The position numbers and the translations under genes were made by a program. DNA of 64,000 nucleotides from Actinobacteria bacterium IMCC26103 (GTDB lineage: Bacteria > Actinomycetota > Actinomycetes > Nanopelagicales > Nanopelagicaceae): NCBI GenBank assembly GCA_002284875.1, contig CP015604.1:310001-374000 (forward strand). The letters run 5' to 3'. Of the stretch, positions 34,390 through 43,603 are shown in pieces (the stretch's first letter is position 1; the number at the start of each line of letters is the position of its first letter). The notes under the pieces were generated by a model. That model did not search any database. It saw only the letters and a program-made list of their open reading frames with translations, and was not told the DNA's origin.

Positions 34390-35808
34390 ATGCGCACTAA
34401 GTTATATATAGATGGTCAATGGGTCGATGGAAACGGGACTTTGGATGTAATTGATCCAAGCGACGGCTCGATAATCGCAAAAGTTGCTACCGCCGGAGAT
34501 GCCCAAATTGAAGCCGCGCTAGCTGCCGCCGACCGCGCCGCGCCCGCCTGGGCAAAGACCGCGCCCCGCGTTCGCGCGGAAATGTTACGTAAAGCATTTG
34601 AGTTAATGATCCAAGAGGCAGATTATCTAGCTGAACTAATTTCTAAAGAAAACGGTAAAGCGATCACCGATGCAAAAGGTGAAGTTGCCTACGCCGCCGA
34701 ATTTTTCCGTTGGTTCTCTGAAGAAGCCGTTCGCATCGCCGGCGATTTCCGAATGTCGCCCAGTGGTGACAAGCGAATTCTTGTAACCCATCAACCTGTT
34801 GGGCTATCGCTCTTAATTACCCCTTGGAATTTTCCTGCGGGTATGGCAACTCGCAAGATCGGCCCTGCTATTGCTGCCGGCTGCACCATGATTTTAAAAC
34901 CAGCAGGTGAAACACCACTTACTGCGCTCGCCATCGTCGATATCTTAGATCGCGCCGGAGTTCCAAAGGGCGTCGTTAATTTAATTTTGCCAACCCCAAC
35001 CGCACCTGCAATGGCAAAAATGTTGCACGACAAGCGAGTTAAAAATCTTTCATTCACCGGTTCAACTGAAGTCGGCCGCATTATCTTGAAAGAAGCCGCC
35101 GACAATGTGATTCGCTGTTCAATGGAGCTCGGTGGAAACGCACCATTTGTTGTTATGGATGATGCCAATATTGATGAAGCAGTTAAAGGTTTAATGCTCG
35201 CCAAGATGCGTAACGGTGGCGCTGCTTGCACCGCTGCAAATCGTGTTTATGTACAACGCGCGGTTGCACAAGAGTTCATGGAAAAGTTTGCAGCAGCTAT
35301 GGGCGCATTTGTTATGGGCCGTGGTCGCGATGCTGGCGTACAACTTGGTGCCAGCGTTTCAGTTAAAGAGCGCAATAAAATTGCCGAACTTGTAGATAAC
35401 TCAATCAAGGCTGGCGCCAAGGTATTAACCGGGGGCAAGACCCCAGATGGACCAGGTGCCTTCTATCCAGCAACAGTTTTAGAGGTAGATAAAGCAGCGG
35501 AAATTCTCAACCATGAAGTATTCGGTCCAGTTGCTCCGGTTGTTGTATTTGATACCGATGCCGAGGCAATCGAATTATCCAACAGTACCGATTTTGGACT
35601 AATTAGTTATGTTTACTCAGAAAACTTAAAGCGCGCGATTCAGATCTCTGAAGCAATCGAATCAGGAATGGTTGCGATCAATCGTGGAATGATTTCAGAT
35701 CCGGCTGCGCCATTCGGTGGCGTTAAGCAATCAGGCTTAGGCCGCGAAGGTGGCTTCGATGGAATCCACGAATTCCTCGAGACTAAATACATTGGCGTCG
35801 AGATTTAA
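34390..35808 (+). CDS. NAD(P)-dependent succinate-semialdehyde-type dehydrogenase
   Basis: 472 aa aldehyde dehydrogenase. The Glu of MELGGNAPFVVMDDA (general base) and the catalytic Cys in GGAACTAANRVYVQ are present, with TPWNFPAGM upstream and the C-terminal PFGGVKQSGLGREGG. Family comparison favours succinate-semialdehyde dehydrogenases (GabD-like). The substrate may be another aldehyde; nothing adjacent decides. It is divergent from the APC permease across a 60-bp gap. Confidence 0.85.
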   Translation: MRTKLYIDGQWVDGNGTLDVIDPSDGSIIAKVATAGDAQIEAALAAADRAAPAWAKTAPRVRAEMLRKAFELMIQEADYLAELISKENGKAITDAKGEVAYAAEFFRWFSEEAVRIAGDFRMSPSGDKRILVTHQPVGLSLLITPWNFPAGMATRKIGPAIAAGCTMILKPAGETPLTALAIVDILDRAGVPKGVVNLILPTPTAPAMAKMLHDKRVKNLSFTGSTEVGRIILKEAADNVIRCSMELGGNAPFVVMDDANIDEAVKGLMLAKMRNGGAACTAANRVYVQRAVAQEFMEKFAAAMGAFVMGRGRDAGVQLGASVSVKERNKIAELVDNSIKAGAKVLTGGKTPDGPGAFYPATVLEVDKAAEILNHEVFGPVAPVVVFDTDAEAIELSNSTDFGLISYVYSENLKRAIQISEAIESGMVAINRGMISDPAAPFGGVKQSGLGREGGFDGIHEFLETKYIGVEI

Positions 35809-35826
35809 TTATTTGCAGAAGGTTCC

Positions 35827-36156
35827 TCAGAGTTCGACTTCGTAGGAAGCCATAAGACGCGCTAATTGATTTTTTATACATTCGATCTGCCAATTCTCGT
35901 CACCACCTAAAGCACTCCAGGAGTTCCGAAACCTTTCAGAACCATCTAAATTCTCAGTTTCGATTTGAAATCCAGGGTTGTGCGATGATCCGTTTTTGCT
36001 CAGCAAATATCGTTTAGCGCTAAATTCAATTTGAGAAGAACCTTCCTGGAGCATTTTTAAGGCCAGATTATCCAAAAAAGTTTCTTGACTCTCCAAAATT
36101 TCGCGAGCGAGCAGCACAACAACGGCCTCTCTATCGAAATTTTGGGATGCTTCCAT
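35827..36156 (-). CDS. Hypothetical protein, 109 aa
   Basis: The frame gives a soluble, moderately acidic protein (REAVVVLLAREILESQETFLDNLALKML near residue 10) without signal peptide or recognised domain. Codon use looks coding, and a Shine-Dalgarno-like GGAAAT precedes the ATG at 36156. It lies at the edge of the tRNA-linked accessory region. Function unknown. The plus-strand ORF overlapping it is a shadow. Confidence 0.5.
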   Translation of the reverse strand: MEASQNFDREAVVVLLAREILESQETFLDNLALKMLQEGSSQIEFSAKRYLLSKNGSSHNPGFQIETENLDGSERFRNSWSALGGDENWQIECIKNQLARLMASYEVEL

Positions 36157-36198
36157 TTCCTAAGTGTCTCATTTTTGGATGCGCATGTGAAGCCCTAT

Positions 36199-36686
36199 TT
36201 AAGTGCCGCAATGTATTTCAATTGTTTTCGGAGAACGAGTCCGACCCGCGTAGTTCCATTTGCCGTTAATTAGCGCCTTGGCATAAGCAACTCCATAAAA
36301 CTTTGTCCGTTTAAAATTTTTGCAGTCTACGAGAGTGTCATAATTTCTTACAACCGTACCTTGAGAAGAAGATTTACCGGGATCTGTAACAGAACTGTTG
36401 AGCATAGGATTGCCAAATTTTTCCACTTTGTAGATGTTGACCGTAAGCGAAACTCGCTCTTGTACGACATTACAAATTGACCTGGCTTTGACAATCACGG
36501 CACGTCTACTGCCAAGTTTAAGTTCATGTCTAGAAATGTGAGCATTATCAATTTCGATTCTGCAAATTGCTTTTTAATTTCTGGCTGCGGGCTTGCCGCA
36601 GTTGCCAGAGGCATAAAAAGAATCGGTGTTAAACAGCAGACACTCATTAAGATGCGCTTGATTGCTTTCTTTCTTAAATATTTCAT
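36199..36686 (-). pseudogene. Frameshifted small secreted Cys-containing protein
   Basis: Two minus-strand frames join into one coherent product. The first (36686 downward) encodes a Sec signal peptide (MKYLRKKAIKRILMSVCC..., cleavage near ATAAS) and runs into EIKKQFAES. The second is open from just after a TAA at 36574-36576 and encodes AICRIEIDNAHISRHELKL... through to a C-terminal IEIHCGT. The junction is a run of five A in the coding strand (T5 at 36571-36575 on plus). Adding one A, or a -1 slip on AAAAAG, gives EIKKAICRIEID with four conserved-looking Cys residues. Taken separately, the first frame would end after 63 aa. Likely a disrupted exported protein, or an assembly error; function unknown. 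Confidence 0.55.
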
Positions 36687-36740
36687 CCGAGAAATATCTA
36701 AGATTTGAAGTTTCAGCCTAGAAAGTTATCCACAGAGCGA

Positions 36741-36812
36741 GCGGAGGATGAGGGATTTATCCGCTTCAGCCTGGGTAATTCCCCCTTTTTTAGGTAAACG
36801 GGTCATAAAAGG
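36741..36812 (-). repeat. Copy A: tRNA-Ser 3'-end-derived repeat (putative attachment site)
   Basis: The first 18 bp (GCGGAGGATGAGGGATTT) are identical to the 3' end of the intact tRNA-Ser gene at 41564-41581. The rest is shared, with few changes, with copy B at 37870-37942, including GGGTAATTCCCC and GGTAAACGGGTCATAAAAGG. The GGAT/ATCC-type arms around AGGGATTT can pair. This is what remains after element insertion into a tRNA gene: the displaced 3' end of the target, followed by the element's own arm. Confidence 0.7.
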
Positions 36813-36816
36813 CACG

Positions 36817-37056
36817 TTACCTATTCTCGTCTTGTTCCGCAATACTCTTTAGATAGAAGGTAGAACTGCAGGCTTTTAATCCGTGGGTCGTCGGTGAGCC
36901 CGACAGGGCCCATTTGTATCTGAGCGTGAAAATAGCGGTTTTGAAATTCTTTTGCCAATCAATTCCTTTATCCGTCACTCTCCAAATCGCCAAGAGGACA
37001 GCCTCCGGCTTATAGGGCGACTCGTCTTTGTATGTTGCATTAATGCTATATAGCAT
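36817..37056 (-). CDS. Hypothetical protein, 79 aa (uncertain)
   Basis: A short soluble frame (MLYSINATYKDESPYKPEAVL..., then AIWRVTDKGIDWQKNF) with no signal peptide or known domain. Its ATG sits within the overlapping palindromes at 37043-37064, so if real it is divergent from and co-regulated with the Xre gene. No good ribosome-binding site is seen. It may be a chance ORF. Confidence 0.3.
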   Translation of the reverse strand: MLYSINATYKDESPYKPEAVLLAIWRVTDKGIDWQKNFKTAIFTLRYKWALSGSPTTHGLKACSSTFYLKSIAEQDENR

Positions 37057-37064
37057 ATATGCTA
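37043..37064. promoter_or_regulatory. Overlapping palindromic operator upstream of Xre regulator
   Basis: ATGCTATATAGCAT (37043-37056) and TAGCATATATGCTA (37051-37064) are both perfect 14-bp palindromes sharing a half-site, giving three TGCTA/TAGCA half-sites in a row. Their place at the start of the Xre gene is typical of an autoregulatory operator. Confidence 0.6.
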
Positions 37065-37070
37065 CTTCCT

Positions 37071-37304
37071 ATGAGTCGCAATCCAGAAGAACCGGTCTAT
37101 AACCGTATTGAAGAAGTCCGTGCTGCCTTAGGCCTAACCAGGCAAGATCTTGCCGATAAGGCTGGCGTGCACTACCAAACTATTGGCTACCTAGAACGTG
37201 AGGAATACAGCCCCTCACTAGTTCTAGCTATCCGTATAGCTAAGTCACTTAACCAAGAGGTATCAGAGCTCTTTTCACTCACCCCATTCAAGAAAGGAAA
37301 GTAA
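37071..37304 (+). CDS. Xre-family helix-turn-helix regulator
   Basis: 77 aa from ATG 37071 (MSRNPEEP); an ATG at 37059 in the same frame would add four residues. The HTH spans about residues 14-65: VRAALGLTRQDLADKAGVHYQTIGYLEREEYSPSL, a Cro/CI-type domain of the short regulators paired with membrane proteins. It probably represses its own operon via the palindromes at 37043-37064. The downstream membrane-protein gene starts 2 nt after its stop, so the two form a unit. Confidence 0.85.
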   Translation: MSRNPEEPVYNRIEEVRAALGLTRQDLADKAGVHYQTIGYLEREEYSPSLVLAIRIAKSLNQEVSELFSLTPFKKGK

Positions 37305-37306
37305 AA

Positions 37307-37852
37307 ATGTCGAAGAAGAACAAGTTTTATTGGTTTGAGGGCGTTACTGAAAAAGAAGTCAAGTCATTACTGACCGATGAGAACTCAAAATTCGGATGGC
37401 TTAGACCTCAGCGCAATCGCAGAGTCCTAGTTGGGCTGATGGTCGTGGGCCTTATTGCAGTGTCGATGGGAAGTTACTGGCCCACTTTGAAAACGAATAT
37501 GAACTTATCTGACGGAACTGCGGTAGTGATTTACAGCGTTACAGCGATCTTCGTTATTTTTGCTGTTCTAGTTGGCTATTTGTTCCTCCGCATAAGCGTT
37601 AGAGGTATAGGAGATGCACCTAACGAACTTCTTGATGAGCGCCAAATTAAGGTGCGAGATACTTCATTCCGATATGCCTACTACGCAATGGGTTATTTAG
37701 TTCTAGGGCTTTTGCTATTGATGCTATTCGGACCTGAGCTGAAGATGTTCCAACCAGAAGGTAATGATGGAAGCTATTTAGTAATTGCTACCCTCTTTGC
37801 TTTTTCATCTATGCCATCAATGGTCTTGGCCTGGCGAGAGCGAGATATCTGA
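37307..37852 (+). CDS. Membrane protein paired with Xre regulator
   Basis: 181 aa with about four membrane segments (near residues 45-65, 72-95, 125-145, 158-176). The loop NELLDERQIKVRDTSFRYAY contains the LDERQ signature of membrane proteins commonly found after small Xre regulators. The N-terminal about 40 residues are hydrophilic. An AGGAAAG sequence just upstream of the ATG is a good ribosome-binding site. Function is unknown; related pairs are suspected regulators of stress or sensing. Confidence 0.72.
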   Translation: MSKKNKFYWFEGVTEKEVKSLLTDENSKFGWLRPQRNRRVLVGLMVVGLIAVSMGSYWPTLKTNMNLSDGTAVVIYSVTAIFVIFAVLVGYLFLRISVRGIGDAPNELLDERQIKVRDTSFRYAYYAMGYLVLGLLLLMLFGPELKMFQPEGNDGSYLVIATLFAFSSMPSMVLAWRERDI

Positions 37853-37866
37853 TCTGCTTATAGGTT

Positions 37867-37942
37867 CTGGCGGAGGATGAGGGATTTATCCTCTTCAGCC
37901 TGGGTAATTCCCCGTTTTTTTTGGTAAACGGGTCATAAAAGG
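37867..37942 (-). repeat. Copy B: tRNA-Ser 3'-end-derived repeat (putative attachment site)
   Basis: CTGGCGGAGGATGAGGGATTT (37867-37887) is identical over 21 bp to 41561-41581 at the 3' end of tRNA-Ser including the CCA. The following 55 bp match copy A nearly throughout. GAGGAT...ATCCTC and CCCGTTT...AAACGGG inverted arms allow two hairpins. It separates the two tandem units of the island. Confidence 0.72.
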
Positions 37943-37953
37943 TAACTCAGTAA

Positions 37954-39498
37954 CTATTTACCTAGATCGAATTGAAGCTGATTGGAATCTCTTAATCGTT
38001 TTAAAGACCAGTTGTTAGTGAGTTCGTCAAACAAGACTGTTCCCAGTCCCTTTCCTCTTTCCTTTTGCACTTCACCGTTGGAAACTATTACATAACGGAC
38101 GGAATCTTCGTGAATAAACCCACTAATTCCAATAACGGTGGCAGAACTATGACGGATCGCATTTGAAATCCCTTCCTGGATCAAAGTAACCGCAATCGGA
38201 AATGTCGATGATTCCACCACATCATTTTCAAAACTCAAGTTAATTTCAGCAATTCCTTCCCAAGCGGCGGCTATGGCTTCCAACTTGGAGAGAGAGTCCA
38301 CCAATAATTCTCTTGAAACGCTGTGGTGATCTTGATTCAACAACTTTGCTGCTCGAAACAATGCCTTCCTACCCATAGCGACGTCACCGGTTTCTGCAGC
38401 CTCGATTAGTAGATGGCTACACGCAGTTAAACCAGATTGAATCTCACCATGCAAGTAATTTGCCATAAAGGAATAATCTTCAGTTGAAGCAAAATTCTGT
38501 GGACCAGACTTTATTTCTGAATCAATGATTACTCCAAGTCGAGCCAGTATTCCTTCTCTATTCCTATTCAAGACTTCCGAGAAGTTATAAGAGCCTAATG
38601 CCGCGAAATAGAGGGCCAAAAGGAACAGGTGCACAAATATGGGAGAGAAAAATTCATCAGAAAAGTTCAAGTTATTTGGCAATAATTCCGAGAAGATAAT
38701 TGGAGTGAGAAACCCCCCAATGATGATGATTGTATTGGCGGCTTTTCGAAGAATGTATTTTCTATCATGAAGCGTTTCAATTGCATAATAGATTATTAAA
38801 TTAGGTAGAAGATAAATTGCACATTGAGCAAGAGCAAAAGAAATTCCAAAGGTGAATTGAATACCTAAAAATAGATACATAGTTGAAATCAAGGCAATTG
38901 GCACAACATGGAGCTTCTCGCTCAGTAACGACATTTGCAGTGCATTTTTGGAGGAAAGCCTATTAATATTTCTAGTGTCTTTCCGATCTAAACTTCTTGT
39001 CATTGGGCGAATCTCTGAATGGATTAGAGCCTTAATCTTTGCCGATTCCTGGAGATAGTCCATTACACCATCTGACTTTGTAAGAAGTTTTGTCATTTCT
39101 CTTTCAAAGGAGGTAGAGAGGTATTTGAGGCGCTTAAGCACCTGATCAATTTCTGCAGCAGTCCTTACCAAAGATTCATCACTATGGAGATTTCTTTGCT
39201 TAATTTGTAGGGCAGTTGTCAATAATCGGGAATACTCTTTTTGAAATGAATGTCTGGTTACGTAAAAAGAGGTGATGGTCATAAACCAGACAGGAGTCGC
39301 CAATGTTGAATTTAGAATCTTGTACCAATTTGTGAAGAGCATCTCCATTCGAAAGGTTGCAACTAACCCACAAATAAAGATTCCACGGAGCGTACCCAGT
39401 ATGAAAAGAGAAAAGATTTCAAAAGCTCTGGATTCTAATCTTGATGCCAGATTCCTTAAGATGATCAGGAAAGGCGCAAGAGATATGTGTGAAAGCAA
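37954..39498 (-). CDS. Membrane sensor histidine kinase (degenerate HATPase)
   Basis: 514 aa as measured from a TTG at 39498. Two hydrophobic clusters (about residues 20-75 and 190-305) flank a coiled cytoplasmic part. The C-terminus has a His in NYLHGEIQSGL suited to a HisKA_3 dimerisation helix, an N-box QEGISNAIRHS, and GKGLGTVLFDEL. The usual D-x-G-x-G of the ATP lid reads SNGEVQ, so nucleotide binding may be altered. The frame is open without a stop back to 39630, immediately after the response-regulator stop, and the first membrane helix would be cut by the TTG start, so the real start is probably further upstream (perhaps ATT at 39630). It is co-directional with the regulator. Confidence 0.72.
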   Translation of the reverse strand: MLSHISLAPFLIILRNLASRLESRAFEIFSLFILGTLRGIFICGLVATFRMEMLFTNWYKILNSTLATPVWFMTITSFYVTRHSFQKEYSRLLTTALQIKQRNLHSDESLVRTAAEIDQVLKRLKYLSTSFEREMTKLLTKSDGVMDYLQESAKIKALIHSEIRPMTRSLDRKDTRNINRLSSKNALQMSLLSEKLHVVPIALISTMYLFLGIQFTFGISFALAQCAIYLLPNLIIYYAIETLHDRKYILRKAANTIIIIGGFLTPIIFSELLPNNLNFSDEFFSPIFVHLFLLALYFAALGSYNFSEVLNRNREGILARLGVIIDSEIKSGPQNFASTEDYSFMANYLHGEIQSGLTACSHLLIEAAETGDVAMGRKALFRAAKLLNQDHHSVSRELLVDSLSKLEAIAAAWEGIAEINLSFENDVVESSTFPIAVTLIQEGISNAIRHSSATVIGISGFIHEDSVRYVIVSNGEVQKERGKGLGTVLFDELTNNWSLKRLRDSNQLQFDLGK

Positions 39499-39630
39499 TC
39501 CAACAAGAATCCAAGCTGTAAGTGTTCTGAAATTCGGAGTTTCATGATCTGCCGATAGAACCGCAACAATTGTTGAAATAGGGGCGGTAATTGCAAATGT
39601 CCGCCAACTTAAGAAAGATAAATTTGAAAT

Positions 39631-40272
39631 TTAGGTTCCCTGACCCTTATTGTCAAAGTACGCACGGACGATTTTTACTCTTTGATGGGTATCCGCAGTT
39701 TTTTCGATACCAAGATGCCGCATGATTCTCGAGATACTTTGCTCTATCGCCTGCTCTGATACATCACGTTTTCTAGCAATTTCTTTTGTGCTCATTCCTT
39801 CAGAGATATCTTTCAATATTTCTACTTGGTTAAGCGACATTCCACCGAGTGGGCTGCTCCTTATCCACGGGACAGAACGTTTTTGCGTGGGTTTGATAAG
39901 CGCAAGAGAGACTTGTTCTGCGATGGATGCCGTAGATCCCATATCTAATTTATTTAAATAAATTGCCCCTTCAGGCAAATTCGGAACTGCTTGACCTATA
40001 AGGCGAGGATCTTTATATGTTGTTAAGAAGACCAAGCCAATAGTCGGATTATTCTTGCGCATTGCGACTGCAACATCGATTCCTGTCGGTCCAAGCCCTA
40101 AATCGAAATCGAGGATTGCAACATCAGGATTGTGTAATTGTTGGGCTTTCATTGCTTCAACCGCAGTGGCAACTCGAGCTTTAACATCGAACCCCTGCAG
40201 TACTAGTGCATCACCAAGTACTGCTCGCGTAAAGGAATCATCTTCAATAAGGATAATTTTGCCTTTACTCAT
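39631..40272 (-). CDS. NarL/LuxR-type response regulator
   Basis: About 213 aa from ATG 40272 (MSKGKIILIEDDS). The receiver has the acidic IEDD pocket, the phospho-acceptor Asp in DVAILDFDLGLGP (near residue 52), and the Thr/Lys residues of LTTYKDP and LNKLD. A LuxR HTH at the C-terminus (about residues 148-205) reads SLNQVEILKDISEGMSTKEIARKRDVSEQAIEQSISRIMRHLG. The kinase gene follows in the same frame directly after its stop. It probably controls the divergent collagen-like gene via the CTTGG-N5-CCAAG pair at 40333-40370. Confidence 0.87.
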   Translation of the reverse strand: MSKGKIILIEDDSFTRAVLGDALVLQGFDVKARVATAVEAMKAQQLHNPDVAILDFDLGLGPTGIDVAVAMRKNNPTIGLVFLTTYKDPRLIGQAVPNLPEGAIYLNKLDMGSTASIAEQVSLALIKPTQKRSVPWIRSSPLGGMSLNQVEILKDISEGMSTKEIARKRDVSEQAIEQSISRIMRHLGIEKTADTHQRVKIVRAYFDNKGQGT

Positions 40273-40332
40273 ATGACCATAATGGCAGAAATTCAATCGC
40301 TCAATAAGGGTTTGAAAAATATTTAATCAAAC

Positions 40333-40370
40333 CTTGGTTAAGCCAAGTTAAGTACCTTGGCAAAACCAAG
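40333..40370. promoter_or_regulatory. Paired inverted repeats CTTGG-N5-CCAAG
   Basis: Two sites, CTTGG-TTAAG-CCAAG (40333-40347) and CTTGG-CAAAA-CCAAG (40356-40370), start 23 bp apart, about two helical turns. They lie between the divergent response-regulator gene and the collagen-like gene. Binding by the NarL-type regulator is inference. Confidence 0.6.
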
Positions 40371-40412
40371 TACATAAGTGTGTTTATGGGGAAAAGAGTT
40401 GAGTCTATAACC

Positions 40413-41549
40413 ATGAGAATTTTACAAATGAGAAGCCTTCGTTCCAGAAAGACTTTAATTAGTTTAAGTCTTTTACTTGCATTTGCTGCACTTCCATCGG
40501 TTGCATCGGATCTAAACTCCACGGCAAGTAAGTATTTGTTGTGCGTAGACCTTAAAAGTAAAAATGTGACTCACCCGTCAAGTAAAAAATGTCCCAAAAC
40601 TTCTAAAGAGCTTCTTATTAATAGCCAAGCAGCGCAAGGTCCAATTGGCCTAACTGGAGCAGCCGGGCTCAATGGCCGAAACGGCATCGATGGGAAAACG
40701 CTTTGGAATGGAACCTTGGATCCTCAAGATTTATTAGGTGCACCTGGTGATGTGTATATAAATACTGCAACAAAATATTTATTTGGACCAAAAACTTTAG
40801 AAAATACTTGGCCAATCGGATTTTCAATCGTTGGTCCAGCTGGCTCGCAAGGCATTCAAGGTATACCTGGTTTTCCAGGAGCCAATGGTGCAAACGGAGG
40901 ACAGGGAGCTTCTGGTGCAACGGGTGCCACAGGTGCAAAAGGTGATGCGGGAGATTCCGGAAGCTCTCTTTCATGTGCTCTCGGCGGTAAATGTCAGATT
41001 GGATCTACTGGTCCTGGTGGCGGTGTTGTTTATTACTATTCAGAAGCGGGATTCACAATGACAGGTGCTCCGTGTGGAAGCTCCTGTCATTATCTCGAAG
41101 TTGCAAATTTAAATTGGCGTGGTGTTTATGAAGTTTTTCGTGACGGCCCAGACATTAAGTGGGCAAAAACAGATACAACGAAGGTTGCAGGCGCTCAAGG
41201 TGTAGCAATTGGAACAGGTTTTGCGAACTCCGAAGCAATTGTCACCCAACAAGGTGCGTGCACAAGCATGGCAAGTTGTGACTTTGCGGCTGGGCTTGCA
41301 AGACTATATACCGGCGGTAGTAAAAATGATTGGTTCCTGCCTTCGTTGTATGAATTGAAACTTATCTTTGCGAATGTTTCTGATCAAATGTACGTCACCG
41401 GCCGAATTTGGTGGAGTTCTTCTCAAGATGATCAAACAGCGACAAATGCGTACGGTCTATGGACTGGAAATAACTTGTACGCATTAACTCCGGTGGCGTA
41501 CCAAAAAGTTGACACCCTTTTGGAACTTAGGCCCATAAGGGCCTTCTAA
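40413..41549 (+). CDS. Secreted collagen-like protein with DUF1566/Lcl-like C-terminal domain
   Basis: About 378 aa from ATG 40413; in-frame starts at GTG 40380 and ATG 40386 exist, but lie at or next to the operator. A Sec signal (RKTLISLSLLLAFAALPSVASD) leads to a mature part with two runs of Gly-x-y triplets, GPIGLTGAAGLNGRNGIDGK near residue 70 and a longer block (GPAGSQGIQGIPGFPGANG...) near residue 140. The C-terminal part has GPGGGVVYYY, then GGSKNDWFLPSLYEL, WWSSSQDD and LLELRPIRAF, as in DUF1566/Lcl_C surface proteins. Cys residues in the middle may form disulfides. It is probably an exported adhesin- or fibre-like protein, under the divergent two-component system. Function is unproven. 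Confidence 0.75.
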   Translation: MRILQMRSLRSRKTLISLSLLLAFAALPSVASDLNSTASKYLLCVDLKSKNVTHPSSKKCPKTSKELLINSQAAQGPIGLTGAAGLNGRNGIDGKTLWNGTLDPQDLLGAPGDVYINTATKYLFGPKTLENTWPIGFSIVGPAGSQGIQGIPGFPGANGANGGQGASGATGATGAKGDAGDSGSSLSCALGGKCQIGSTGPGGGVVYYYSEAGFTMTGAPCGSSCHYLEVANLNWRGVYEVFRDGPDIKWAKTDTTKVAGAQGVAIGTGFANSEAIVTQQGACTSMASCDFAAGLARLYTGGSKNDWFLPSLYELKLIFANVSDQMYVTGRIWWSSSQDDQTATNAYGLWTGNNLYALTPVAYQKVDTLLELRPIRAF

Positions 41550-41561
41550 GCTTCTCAAATC

Positions 41562-41649
41562 TGGCGGAGGATGAGGGATTTGAACCCTCGAAAGGTTGCC
41601 CTTTACACGCTTTCCAAGCGTGCGCACTCGGCCGCTATGCGAATCCTCC
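41562..41649 (-). tRNA. tRNA-Ser (GGA)
   Basis: 88 nt on the minus strand. The acceptor GGAGGAT pairs with ATCCTCC, followed by discriminator G and an encoded CCA. The anticodon arm ACGCT-TTGGAAA-AGCGT shows anticodon GGA. A long variable arm (TAAAGGGCAACCTTTC) and the GGTTCAAATCC T-arm confirm class II Ser. Its 3' end is the source of copies A and B. Order tRNA-Ser, SRP RNA, dnaX is a known actinobacterial arrangement. Confidence 0.97.
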
Positions 41650-41796: not shown

Positions 41797-41839
41797 TTAA
41801 GATTGTGAAGAATTTAAAGCGCAGAAGAGAGGAGTGAAT

Positions 41840-43603
41840 ATGTCACTCGCGTTGTATCGCAAGTATCGACCATCTGTATTTGCAGATGTGATCGGACAAG
41901 AACATGTGACTGTTCCACTCTCGAACGCACTCACTTCTGGCAAGACACATCACGCATATCTATTTAGCGGACCACGTGGTTGCGGAAAAACTTCTAGCGC
42001 TCGCATCATGGCGCGCTCGCTTAACTGCGAACAAGGTCCAACCCCAACTCCTTGCGGCCTTTGCCAATCATGTAAGGATTTAGTTGCAAATGGTCCAGGA
42101 TCACTTGATGTTATTGAATTAGATGCGGCGACCCACGGTTTAGTCGATGATGCGCGCGATCTGCGCGATAAAGCATTCTTTGCACCAGTCCAAAGCCGTT
42201 ACAAGATTTACATCATCGATGAAGCCCATCAGCTCGGACCAGGAGCCGCCAATGCGCTCTTGAAAGTTGTGGAAGAGCCACCTCCCCACGTTATTTTTAT
42301 CTTTGCAACAACCGAACCAGAAAAGTTGATTTCAACTATTCGTTCACGTACTCACCACTATCCATTCCGCTTAGTTCCGCCTGGAATCTTGGCCGAACAC
42401 CTTGAAAAGATTTGCAAAGAAGAAGGCGCAACTGTTGCTAAAGGCGTTATTCCTTTAGTTGTGCGCGCAAGCGGGGGATCAGTTCGTGATGCCCTTTCCG
42501 TCCTAGGCCAGCTATTAGCCGGTGCTGGTCCCGACGGGGTTAGCTACGAAATTGCAATTCAATTGCTTGGCTTCACCGATGGTGCGCTACTAGATGATGC
42601 TGTTGATGCACTCGCCGCACGTGATGGCGCAACGTTATTTAAAACCGTTGATCGCGTAATCGAATCAGGCCACGATCCACGTCGCTTTGCAAGTGATTTC
42701 CTTGAACGCCTGCGCGATCTGATGATCGTTGATGCACTCGCTTCAACTAACGCTAATTCTATTTTGCGCGAACTACCTGATGATCAGTTAGAACGTATGC
42801 GCACCCAAGCAACCAACATCGGCGCCGCAAACTTATCTCGTTGCGCAGATGTTGCTGCTGAAGGTTTAACTCAAATGCGCGGTGCAACTGCGCCACGTTT
42901 AATTCTCGAACTCATCTGCGGCCGTATGTTATTGCCAGGTGGCGATAACACCGAAGCAGGAATGCTCTCCCGAATCGAACGCCTAGAGCGCGTCGAAAAT
43001 ATTTCAACACCGGCACCAGTTGCTGCACCAACCCCAGCTGTCGCGAAATCCAAAGTTGCTGCACCTGTACCAGCAGAGACTTCAAAAGAAACTGTTGGCG
43101 GAGGCGACTCTAAAGAAGCTTTTCCCGAGTCGCCAAGCCAAGCAGTTTCTGTGAAGTCAGAAAAAGTTCCCGAGTCGACGAGCCAACCTGCTTCGGAGAA
43201 AAACAAAGTTATGGATATCGCTGGTTTGCGCCGCTTGTGGCCAGATGTAATCGAAAACGTGAAGAAGCGCCGTCGCCTAACCTGGTCCTTACTTTCAGCC
43301 TCAGCCCAAATCGTCGCGATTGACGAGAAGCTAATAACAATAGGCATTGTTAACGCCGGCGCCCGAGATTCATTTGTTCGCTCTGAATCAGATGAAATTC
43401 TGCGCCAAGCTTTTATCGAAATAGTCGGCATTGATCGCAAGATCGAAGTCGTTGTGGATGCTTCTATTGATACAACATCAACTCCTGAAGCGCGCGCGGT
43501 TCGTAAAGATGAAGCGCCATCAGATAAGAACTTGTTATCGGGTGCAGCACTGCTTGCTGCTGAACTTGGCGCAACTGTGATCAACGAAAAGAATAAGAGT
43601 TAA
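41840..43603 (+). CDS. dnaX: DNA polymerase III subunit gamma/tau
   Basis: 587 aa from ATG 41840 ([11 protein letters not shown]), with AGGAG just upstream; the GTG at 41834 is less likely. Walker [12 protein letters not shown], the zinc site [10 protein letters not shown] and [11 protein letters not shown] (Walker B) mark the AAA+ clamp-loader core. [21 protein letters not shown] and the Ser-Arg-Cys sensor follow. The C-terminal tail is Ala/Pro/Ser-rich and then a tau-like domain ([23 protein letters not shown]). It loads the sliding clamp at the replisome. recR starts at its stop (TAATG). Confidence 0.95.

What the first reader, a model, noticed from the sequence alone, without database searches (positions are those of the whole stretch)
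36741..41581. Two tandem integrase-less units inserted at the tRNA-Ser 3' end
An 18-21 bp piece of the tRNA-Ser 3' end (CTGGCGGAGGATGAGGGATTT, 41561-41581) recurs exactly at 37867-37887 and, from GCGG on, at 36741-36758, all in the same orientation. The copies at A and B continue for a further 50 bp that they share with each other but not with the tRNA. That is the footprint of two related elements integrated one after the other at one tRNA target. Neither unit (1.1 and 3.7 kb) encodes a recombinase, and both carry regulatory or surface genes. This suggests small cargo elements moved in trans, or a decayed island; a cassette-like chain at one tRNA could be an undescribed accessory-gene loading system in streamlined freshwater Actinobacteria.
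Basis: partly seen in the sequence, partly recalled or inferred. Interest (0 to 1): 0.75.

Follow-up and report, generated by a model that had tools for sequence, protein, structure and literature searches.

The report
Integrase-less gene cassettes at tRNA-Ser
In tiny-genome freshwater Actinobacteria, small gene packets without their own integration enzyme sit one after another at the end of a serine tRNA gene, share one recognisable attachment site that also appears at valine and lysine tRNA genes, and have moved between species, apparently by borrowing a phage-type integrase found at the same tRNA in two relatives.

Summary
Two 72-76-bp copies (36741-36816, 37870-37946; 95% identical) each begin with the 18-bp 3' end of tRNA-Ser(GGA). 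They are the only two in this complete 1.46-Mb genome.

The site occurs in 38 of 296 family genomes and nowhere else among about 300 genomes of the class. Close relatives have empty sites (aldehyde-dehydrogenase gene, 10-20 bp, tRNA, dnaX) or different cargo. Insertion boundaries fall exactly at the tRNA core. Unit 2 is 94-96% identical to a unit in isolate IMCC19121, although flanking genes are only 70-79% identical, so it moved horizontally. Unit 1's end recurs in a third genome before a different unit.

Two relatives carry a tyrosine integrase beside tRNA-Ser(GGA)/(CGA), with an inverted copy of the repeat's arm exactly 20 bp from the core. This gives a symmetric attP centred on TGAGGG, a hexamer that tRNA-Ser, tRNA-Val(TAC) and tRNA-Lys(CTT) share. 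The same arm occurs with all three cores, including hybrid Ser/Val and Ser/Lys junctions.

Best reading: a CIME-like cassette chain, probably mobilised in trans. It is a new variant of a known kind. Excised circles and trans-mobilisation are not demonstrated.

The parts
34390..35808 (+). Aldehyde dehydrogenase gene: conserved left flank. In empty-site relatives its stop codon lies 10-20 bp from the tRNA core.
35809..36740 (.). Older leftmost unit (109-aa ORF and a small secreted-protein ORF of a cassette family, here split into two frames); its own left core is missing. Its 36199-36498 ORF groups with a protein family found beside the repeat in other genomes.
   Evidence: absent in L098 and L099
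36741..36758 (+). Core copy A (tRNA-Ser 3' end, GCGGAGGATGAGGGATTT); inferred exchange hexamer TGAGGG at 36749-36754
36759..36816 (+). Arm of copy A: GGGTAATTCCCC motif plus hairpin
36741..37869 (.). Unit 1 (1.1 kb). Cargo: Cro/C1-type HTH regulator and a 181-aa protein of unknown family. Its last 98 bp are 99% identical to acTH1 contig BJFU01000003 (L057), where a different unit follows.
36847..36917 (+). Degenerate tRNA-Lys(TTT) copy (84% identical to the intact gene at genome 383,356-383,429)
37059..37304 (+). HTH_3 regulator (81 aa)
   Evidence: Pfam PF01381, E 3e-12
37307..37852 (+). 181-aa protein, no family match
37870..37887 (+). Core copy B; inferred exchange hexamer TGAGGG at 37878-37883
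37888..37946 (+). Arm of copy B
37870..41563 (.). Unit 2 (3.7 kb). Same unit in IMCC19121 at 94-96% identity over 37866-40944, versus 69.5% and 78.6% in the flanks.
37954..39498 (-). Probable sensor histidine kinase (no Pfam or NCBIfam match; judged from the adjacent response regulator and a kinase-like motif)
   Evidence: inference
39631..40296 (-). Response regulator, LuxR type
   Evidence: PF00072, PF00196
40380..41549 (+). Secreted collagen-like surface protein. Its C-terminal part is unrelated to the copy in IMCC19121 at DNA level.
   Evidence: PF01391 just under cut-off; NCBIfam Lcl-like, below cut-off
41562..41649 (-). tRNA-Ser(GGA), the integration target; core at 41564-41581, exchange hexamer TGAGGG at 41572-41577
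41834..43603 (+). dnaX: conserved right flank

Best explanation
A chain of small integrative gene cassettes has been loaded one after another onto the 3' end of tRNA-Ser(GGA). Each cassette, as a circle, carries one attachment site: 18 bp copying the tRNA 3' end plus an arm. A tyrosine integrase exchanges strands within TGAGGG in the T-arm part of the tRNA, so the tRNA gene is rebuilt and the displaced core, with the element's arm, marks the far end. A new cassette can enter at any core, which gives tandem chains. The integrase is not in the cassettes. It is encoded by rare related elements at the same tRNA, two of which were found, and most likely acts on the cassettes in trans (CIME-like). 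Because tRNA-Val(TAC) and tRNA-Lys(CTT) share TGAGGG at the same position, the same arm has also been captured at those genes. Shown: the site, the boundaries, empty sites, horizontal transfer, the integrase-bearing relatives, the shared arm and the hybrid junctions. Inferred: the exchange point, action in trans, circular intermediates and the route between cells.
For: Empty versus filled sites: L098 and L099 have ALDH directly next to the tRNA. L102 versus L140 and L144 show homology ending at the last base of the core and resuming at the tRNA core, with 3.7-kb and 1.15-kb insertions; L159 versus L100 breaks at the core. Transfer: unit 2 is 94-96% identical to IMCC19121 while ALDH is 69.5% and dnaX 78.6%, and its left edge is at the core. 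Unit 1's end at 99% is followed by another unit in L057. Integrase-bearing relatives: Phage_integrase E 8e-19, adjacent to tRNA-Ser(GGA) in G227 and to tRNA-Ser(CGA) in G242. The inverted arm GGGGAATTACCC stands at exactly -20 in 5 of 60 right ends, including both integrase elements; chance is 0.5% per 60-mer. Same arm with Val and Lys cores, and hybrids L150 and L153. Hairpin covariation: 4 of 7 pairs with double changes, score 0.328 versus 0.137, 0 of 500 shuffles. Contigs end on the cargo side within 60 bp in 5 of 40 cases versus 0.19 expected, 0 on the other side.
Against: The integrase was found in only 2 of 296 family genomes against 38 with the site. The window's genome lacks that integrase, and four complete genomes with the site have only two tyrosine recombinases, of XerC/XerD size. 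Both integrase elements are cut by contig ends, so their far ends were not seen. Most cassette right ends, including both in the window, lack the inverted arm. No excised circle or read evidence. No viral contig, phage or plasmid carries the site or the integrase, apart from one 29%-identical plasmid integrase.
Confidence: 0.68

Rival explanations
1. Decayed accretion array. Complete integrase-bearing elements integrated in tandem, lost their integrases by deletion, and the leftover units now spread only by homologous recombination between repeats or flanks.
For: Most right ends lack the inverted arm. The leftmost unit has lost its left core and its small ORF is split. Integrase fragments survive in units at tRNA-Lys(CTT), tRNA-Phe and tRNA-Arg in other genomes.
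Against: Unit 2 moved between species with about 70-79% identical flanks, its left edge exactly at the core and already without an integrase. The arm hairpin is kept by compensatory changes, which neutral debris would not be.
Confidence: 0.27
2. Integron-like system: the site is recognised as a folded single strand, with the arm pairing with the tRNA core as in attC.
For: RNAalifold pairs the arm with the core. The second hairpin covaries strongly.
Against: Swap test: own-arm pairing with the core is no better than other-type arms for Ser sites and only somewhat better for Val. The arms have inverted repeats centred on the core as in double-strand attP. The integrase scores far below the cut-offs of Xer and integron models.
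Confidence: 0.06
3. The repeat is an ordinary terminator, RNA gene or extragenic repeat that happens to sit near the tRNA.
For: It has a GC-containing hairpin.
Against: Only two copies per genome, at tRNA 3' ends, with exact insertion boundaries. No T-run terminator there. No Rfam match.
Confidence: 0.02

Closest known systems
CIMEs (cis-mobilizable elements) and site-specific accretion, reviewed in PMC5704250
   Same: Tandem elements in one tRNA target that lack integration and transfer genes but keep attachment sites; a newcomer integrates in the site next to the tRNA.
   Different: CIMEs are decayed ICEs or IMEs. Here units are 0.8-7 kb of plain accessory genes with no trace of conjugation genes seen. 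One arm is found with three tRNA cores. The integrase source is very rare.
Dehalococcoides ssrA genomic islands (PMC3146451)
   Same: Tandem islands bounded by 20-bp direct repeats of an RNA gene 3' end with extra conserved flanking bases; about half lack the integration module.
   Different: Serine recombinase and tmRNA target there; tyrosine integrase and several tRNA genes here.
Additive flexible genomic island of 'Ca. Methylopumilus' at tRNA-Lys(CTT) (PMC10872708)
   Same: Recurring 20-bp tRNA-Lys 3' repeats with variable cargo in another streamlined freshwater lineage.
   Different: Different phylum and tRNA segment. The passages read report no shared arm beyond the tRNA bases and no retargeting.
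tRNA-anchored cassettes in 'Ca. Actinomarinales' fGI1 (PMC7771536)
   Same: Small cassettes inserted at tRNAs with direct repeats of part of the tRNA in streamlined aquatic actinobacteria.
   Different: Glycotype island with five tRNAs; in the section read, neither a conserved attachment arm nor an integrase is described.
Tycheposons (described for Prochlorococcus; cited in PMC10872708)
   Same: tRNA-anchored cargo carriers in streamlined plankton.
   Different: Tycheposons are 4-200 kb and carry a tyrosine recombinase; these units are small and carry none.

Membership tests
Tyrosine-integrase element at a tRNA 3' end | Direct repeat of the tRNA 3' end at the distal boundary, intact tRNA at the other | tested here: met
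Tyrosine-integrase element at a tRNA 3' end | Empty site with one core copy in relatives, insertion exact at the core | tested here: met
Tyrosine-integrase element at a tRNA 3' end | Integrase gene within the element | tested here: not met
   None in either window unit nor in the cassettes scanned; present only in related elements of G227 and G242
CIME (cis-mobilizable element) | No integration or transfer genes but attachment sites retained | tested here: met
   right arm incomplete in most units
CIME (cis-mobilizable element) | Derived from an ICE or IME by deletion | tested here: inconclusive
   No ICE or IME genes seen; parent element not completely recovered
CIME (cis-mobilizable element) | Mobilised by a co-resident element with matching site | not testable with these tools
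   needs reads or experiment
Tycheposon | 4-200 kb with its own tyrosine recombinase | tested here: not met
   units of 1.1 and 3.7 kb, no recombinase
Integron cassette array | IntI integrase in the genome | tested here: not met
   Own genome: two XerC/XerD-size recombinases plus the tRNA-Leu island integrase, which scores 55 bits against a 265-bit integron-integrase cut-off
Integron cassette array | attC fold pairing across the site | tested here: not met
   swap control negative for Ser sites

The most novel reading that the evidence does not exclude
A lineage-wide accessory-gene loading system. Integrase-free cassettes share one structured attachment site, and because the exchange hexamer TGAGGG is common to tRNA-Ser, tRNA-Val(TAC) and tRNA-Lys(CTT), they can be loaded onto, and moved between, several tRNA genes by a rarely resident integrase acting in trans. 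This would give streamlined plankton a low-cost way to exchange surface and regulatory genes between species.
Probability: 0.35. Interest if true: 0.72.

Novelty: new variant of a known kind. Interest (0 to 1): 0.56.

Why it matters
Streamlined freshwater Actinobacteria are among the commonest lake bacteria, yet how they exchange accessory genes is poorly known. A recognisable 76-bp site, with a model that finds it, marks where small packets of surface and regulatory genes enter and leave, and names the likely enzyme. Retargeting across tRNAs through a shared hexamer explains how a tRNA-specific element can change address. It can be tested with a purified integrase and short DNA, and with long reads from lake samples.

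Tried and rejected
(1) attC-like pairing of the arm with the tRNA core: suggested by RNAalifold but not supported by the arm-swap control; dropped. (2) Arm as coding sequence (minus strand MTRLPKKRGITQVEEDKSLILR): open in the variants translated by eye, but the variable bases 23, 26, 29 and 32 fall on second codon positions, so not supported. (3) Retroelement primer-binding site: the bases before the core (TGG) are not conserved. (4) Phage or plasmid origin: no site or related integrase in IMG/VR or INPHARED, and only a weak integrase match in PLSDB. The four viral contigs with the core (L254-L257) are three phage tRNA-Ser genes and one chance match. (5) Serine recombinase as mover: absent in 7 of 8 genomes searched. 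(6) Terminator or Rfam RNA: none. (8) A first tRNA-Lys pattern search found nothing because the T-loop was mis-specified; corrected.
Full report
OBSERVATION. tRNA-Ser(GGA) is at 41562-41649 on the minus strand. The 22-mer TCTGGCGGAGGATGAGGGATTT stands at 41560-41581 and 37866-37887, and its last 18 bases at 36741-36758. Copies A and B continue together for about 55 bases (95% identity, E about 1e-25) that the tRNA lacks. A covariance model of the site (R1) finds exactly these two places in the complete 1.456-Mb genome.

RELATED SITES. The 22-mer joining core and arm occurs in 23 contigs of species-representative genomes, most of them titled as actinobacterial MAGs plus the isolate IMCC19121. 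A model that also admits other cores (R2) finds the site in 38 of 296 genomes of the family, in 8 of 17 genera, at most three per genome. Among 297 genomes drawn from the whole class only members of this family have it.

EMPTY SITES AND ALTERNATE CARGO. In the conserved neighbourhood (aldehyde dehydrogenase - tRNA-Ser(GGA) - dnaX - recR), relatives G001 and G030 have the dehydrogenase stop codon 10 and 20 bp from the core, with nothing between. Elsewhere the gap holds quite different genes: the two-component/collagen unit, GNAT acetyltransferase, large secreted proteins, a Fic/Doc-type protein, a glycosyltransferase-like membrane protein. Pairwise comparison places the boundaries at the core. 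L102 (no unit next to the tRNA) matches L140 and L144 up to the last base of the core and again from the tRNA core on, with 3.7-kb and 1.15-kb insertions. L159 and L100 are 92% identical up to the last core base and then differ. L154 and L155 share a unit that starts at the core (85% versus about 72% in the left flank).

HORIZONTAL MOVEMENT. Unit 2 (37866-40944) is 94-96% identical to its counterpart in IMCC19121, whereas the dehydrogenase region is 69.5% and dnaX 78.6% identical. In 100-base bins most of the kinase and regulator region is 96-100% identical. The C-terminal half of the collagen-like gene is unrelated between the two at DNA level, as expected for a surface protein under diversifying pressure (inference). 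IMCC19121 lacks unit 1. The last 98 bases of unit 1 recur at 99% identity in an acTH1 contig (L057), followed there by core, arm and a different unit. Units therefore recombine as modules.

POPULATION SIGNAL. In fragmented assemblies, contigs end within 60 bp on the cargo side of the site in 5 of 40 cases (0.19 expected from contig lengths) and never on the other side. This fits co-occurring strains with different cargo behind one shared site. Repeat-induced breaks may contribute.

INTEGRASE. Neither window unit encodes a recombinase. The own genome has three tyrosine recombinases: two of XerC/XerD size and one inside a separate tRNA-Leu(TAA) island. Four complete genomes with the site (G189, G266, G280, G126) have only two each, and serine recombinases are absent in 7 of 8 genomes. 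In G227, however, a tyrosine integrase (Phage_integrase, E 8e-19) follows directly on tRNA-Ser(GGA) next to dnaX. In G242 an 89%-identical element, with the integrase cut at the contig end, sits at a tRNA-Ser(CGA) beside tRNA-Ser(GGA). Immediately before the core both read GGGGAATTACCC...CTG, the inverse of the arm motif GGGTAATTCCCC. The motif (up to two mismatches) stands at exactly -20 in five distinct right ends out of 60 sites, three of them without an integrase; the chance rate is 0.5% per 60-mer. The deduced attP is GGGGAATTACCCACGTTCTG - GCGGAGGATGAGGGATTT - ATCCTCTTCAACCTGGGTAATTCCCCG. Its centre of symmetry falls within TGAGGG (core positions 9-14).

RETARGETING. The same arm occurs behind cores that match tRNA-Val(TAC) (L153, L157, L173, L177, L229) and tRNA-Lys(CTT) (L146, L097, L152, L150, L170, L174). 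Several Val sites lie 1.3-1.8 kb from an intact tRNA-Val, and in G258 the Lys site lies 2 kb from a tRNA-Lys core. The three tRNAs share TGAGGG at the same position and differ on both sides of it. Two hybrid junctions switch exactly there: L150 (Lys left, Ser right) and L153 at 5448 (Ser left, Val right). One large, loosely defined family of secreted proteins (F5, 24 members by single-linkage clustering) lies next to the arm at tRNA-Ser, tRNA-Val and in one contig with a Lys-type core. Caveat: for some Lys-type sites (L150, L141) no intact tRNA-Lys was found within tens of kb, so those may be displaced or secondary sites.

ARM STRUCTURE. The distal hairpin of the arm is maintained by double changes in 4 of 7 pairs (covariation score 0.328 versus 0.137 in shuffles, 0 of 500; collapse when slid). 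This means the pairing itself is under selection. Whether that reflects a folded strand or a dyad-binding protein is unknown. A proposed pairing of arm and tRNA core did not survive an arm-swap control.

MECHANISM. The best reading is integration of small circles at tRNA 3' ends by a tyrosine integrase of the G227/G242 type, exchange within TGAGGG, entry at any core (hence chains), and mobilisation of integrase-less units by an integrase that is only sporadically resident. The first parts are well supported by anatomy. Action in trans, circles and the route between cells are inference. The main rival is a decayed array whose units now spread by homologous recombination. It is weakened by exact-edge transfer between species that are only 70-79% identical in the flanks, but not excluded.

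COMPARISON. Integrase-less tandem units at one tRNA are known as CIMEs formed by accretion (PMC5704250). Dehalococcoides ssrA islands are a close parallel with a serine recombinase (PMC3146451). Variable cargo between tRNA fragments has been reported in freshwater Methylopumilus and marine Actinomarinales (PMC10872708 and PMC7771536). What appears new, within the papers that could be searched, is the conserved structured arm, its appearance on three tRNA species with hybrid junctions, and the system in this lineage. Verdict: new variant of a known kind.

Noticed in passing
own genome G000:C1:71,072-89,654 (locus L095): A tRNA-Leu(TAA) chain: two intact tRNA-Leu copies 13 kb apart plus two further copies of the 3' end upstream. 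One unit carries its own tyrosine integrase, a 1058-aa methylase-like and a 1173-aa helicase-like protein that look like a defence or restriction system.
   Followed up: partly
own genome G000:C1:703,635-705,190 (locus L245, 6636-8191): A second cassette in the same genome, at tRNA-Lys(CTT): a core-like copy 1.5 kb from the tRNA, a secreted protein of the same cargo family (F5), and a different arm sequence.
   Followed up: partly
L096, L148, L162, L165, L168, L297: Some chains contain an 84-86-nt tRNA-Ser(CGA) whose 3' end is identical to that of tRNA-Ser(GGA) and serves as a core. In other genomes a tRNA-Ser(CGA) of 88-90 nt sits several kb away beside tadA. The tRNA itself may be mobile.
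   Followed up: partly
window 36847-36917: Degenerate tRNA-Lys(TTT) copy inside unit 1; the intact gene lies about 36 kb downstream. Possibly the scar of another element.
   Followed up: partly
window 40900-41549 versus L140: The collagen-like gene keeps its N-terminal part between species but has an unrelated C-terminal part at DNA level, suggesting domain swapping in a surface protein next to a two-component system.
   Followed up: no
repeat positions 23, 26, 29, 32 (window 36763, 36766, 36769, 36772): Within the otherwise invariant first part of the arm, variation is concentrated at every third base. Neither coding frame nor pairing explains it.
   Followed up: partly
L047 (2694-2909): A duplicated 3' end of the aldehyde-dehydrogenase gene lies between cassette genes, as if another element had used that gene end as its target.
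   Followed up: no
60 tRNA-Ser or repeat cores: Whether the tRNA gene encodes its terminal CCA (CTG before the core) varies between loci. The bases before the core come from whichever unit entered last.
   Followed up: no
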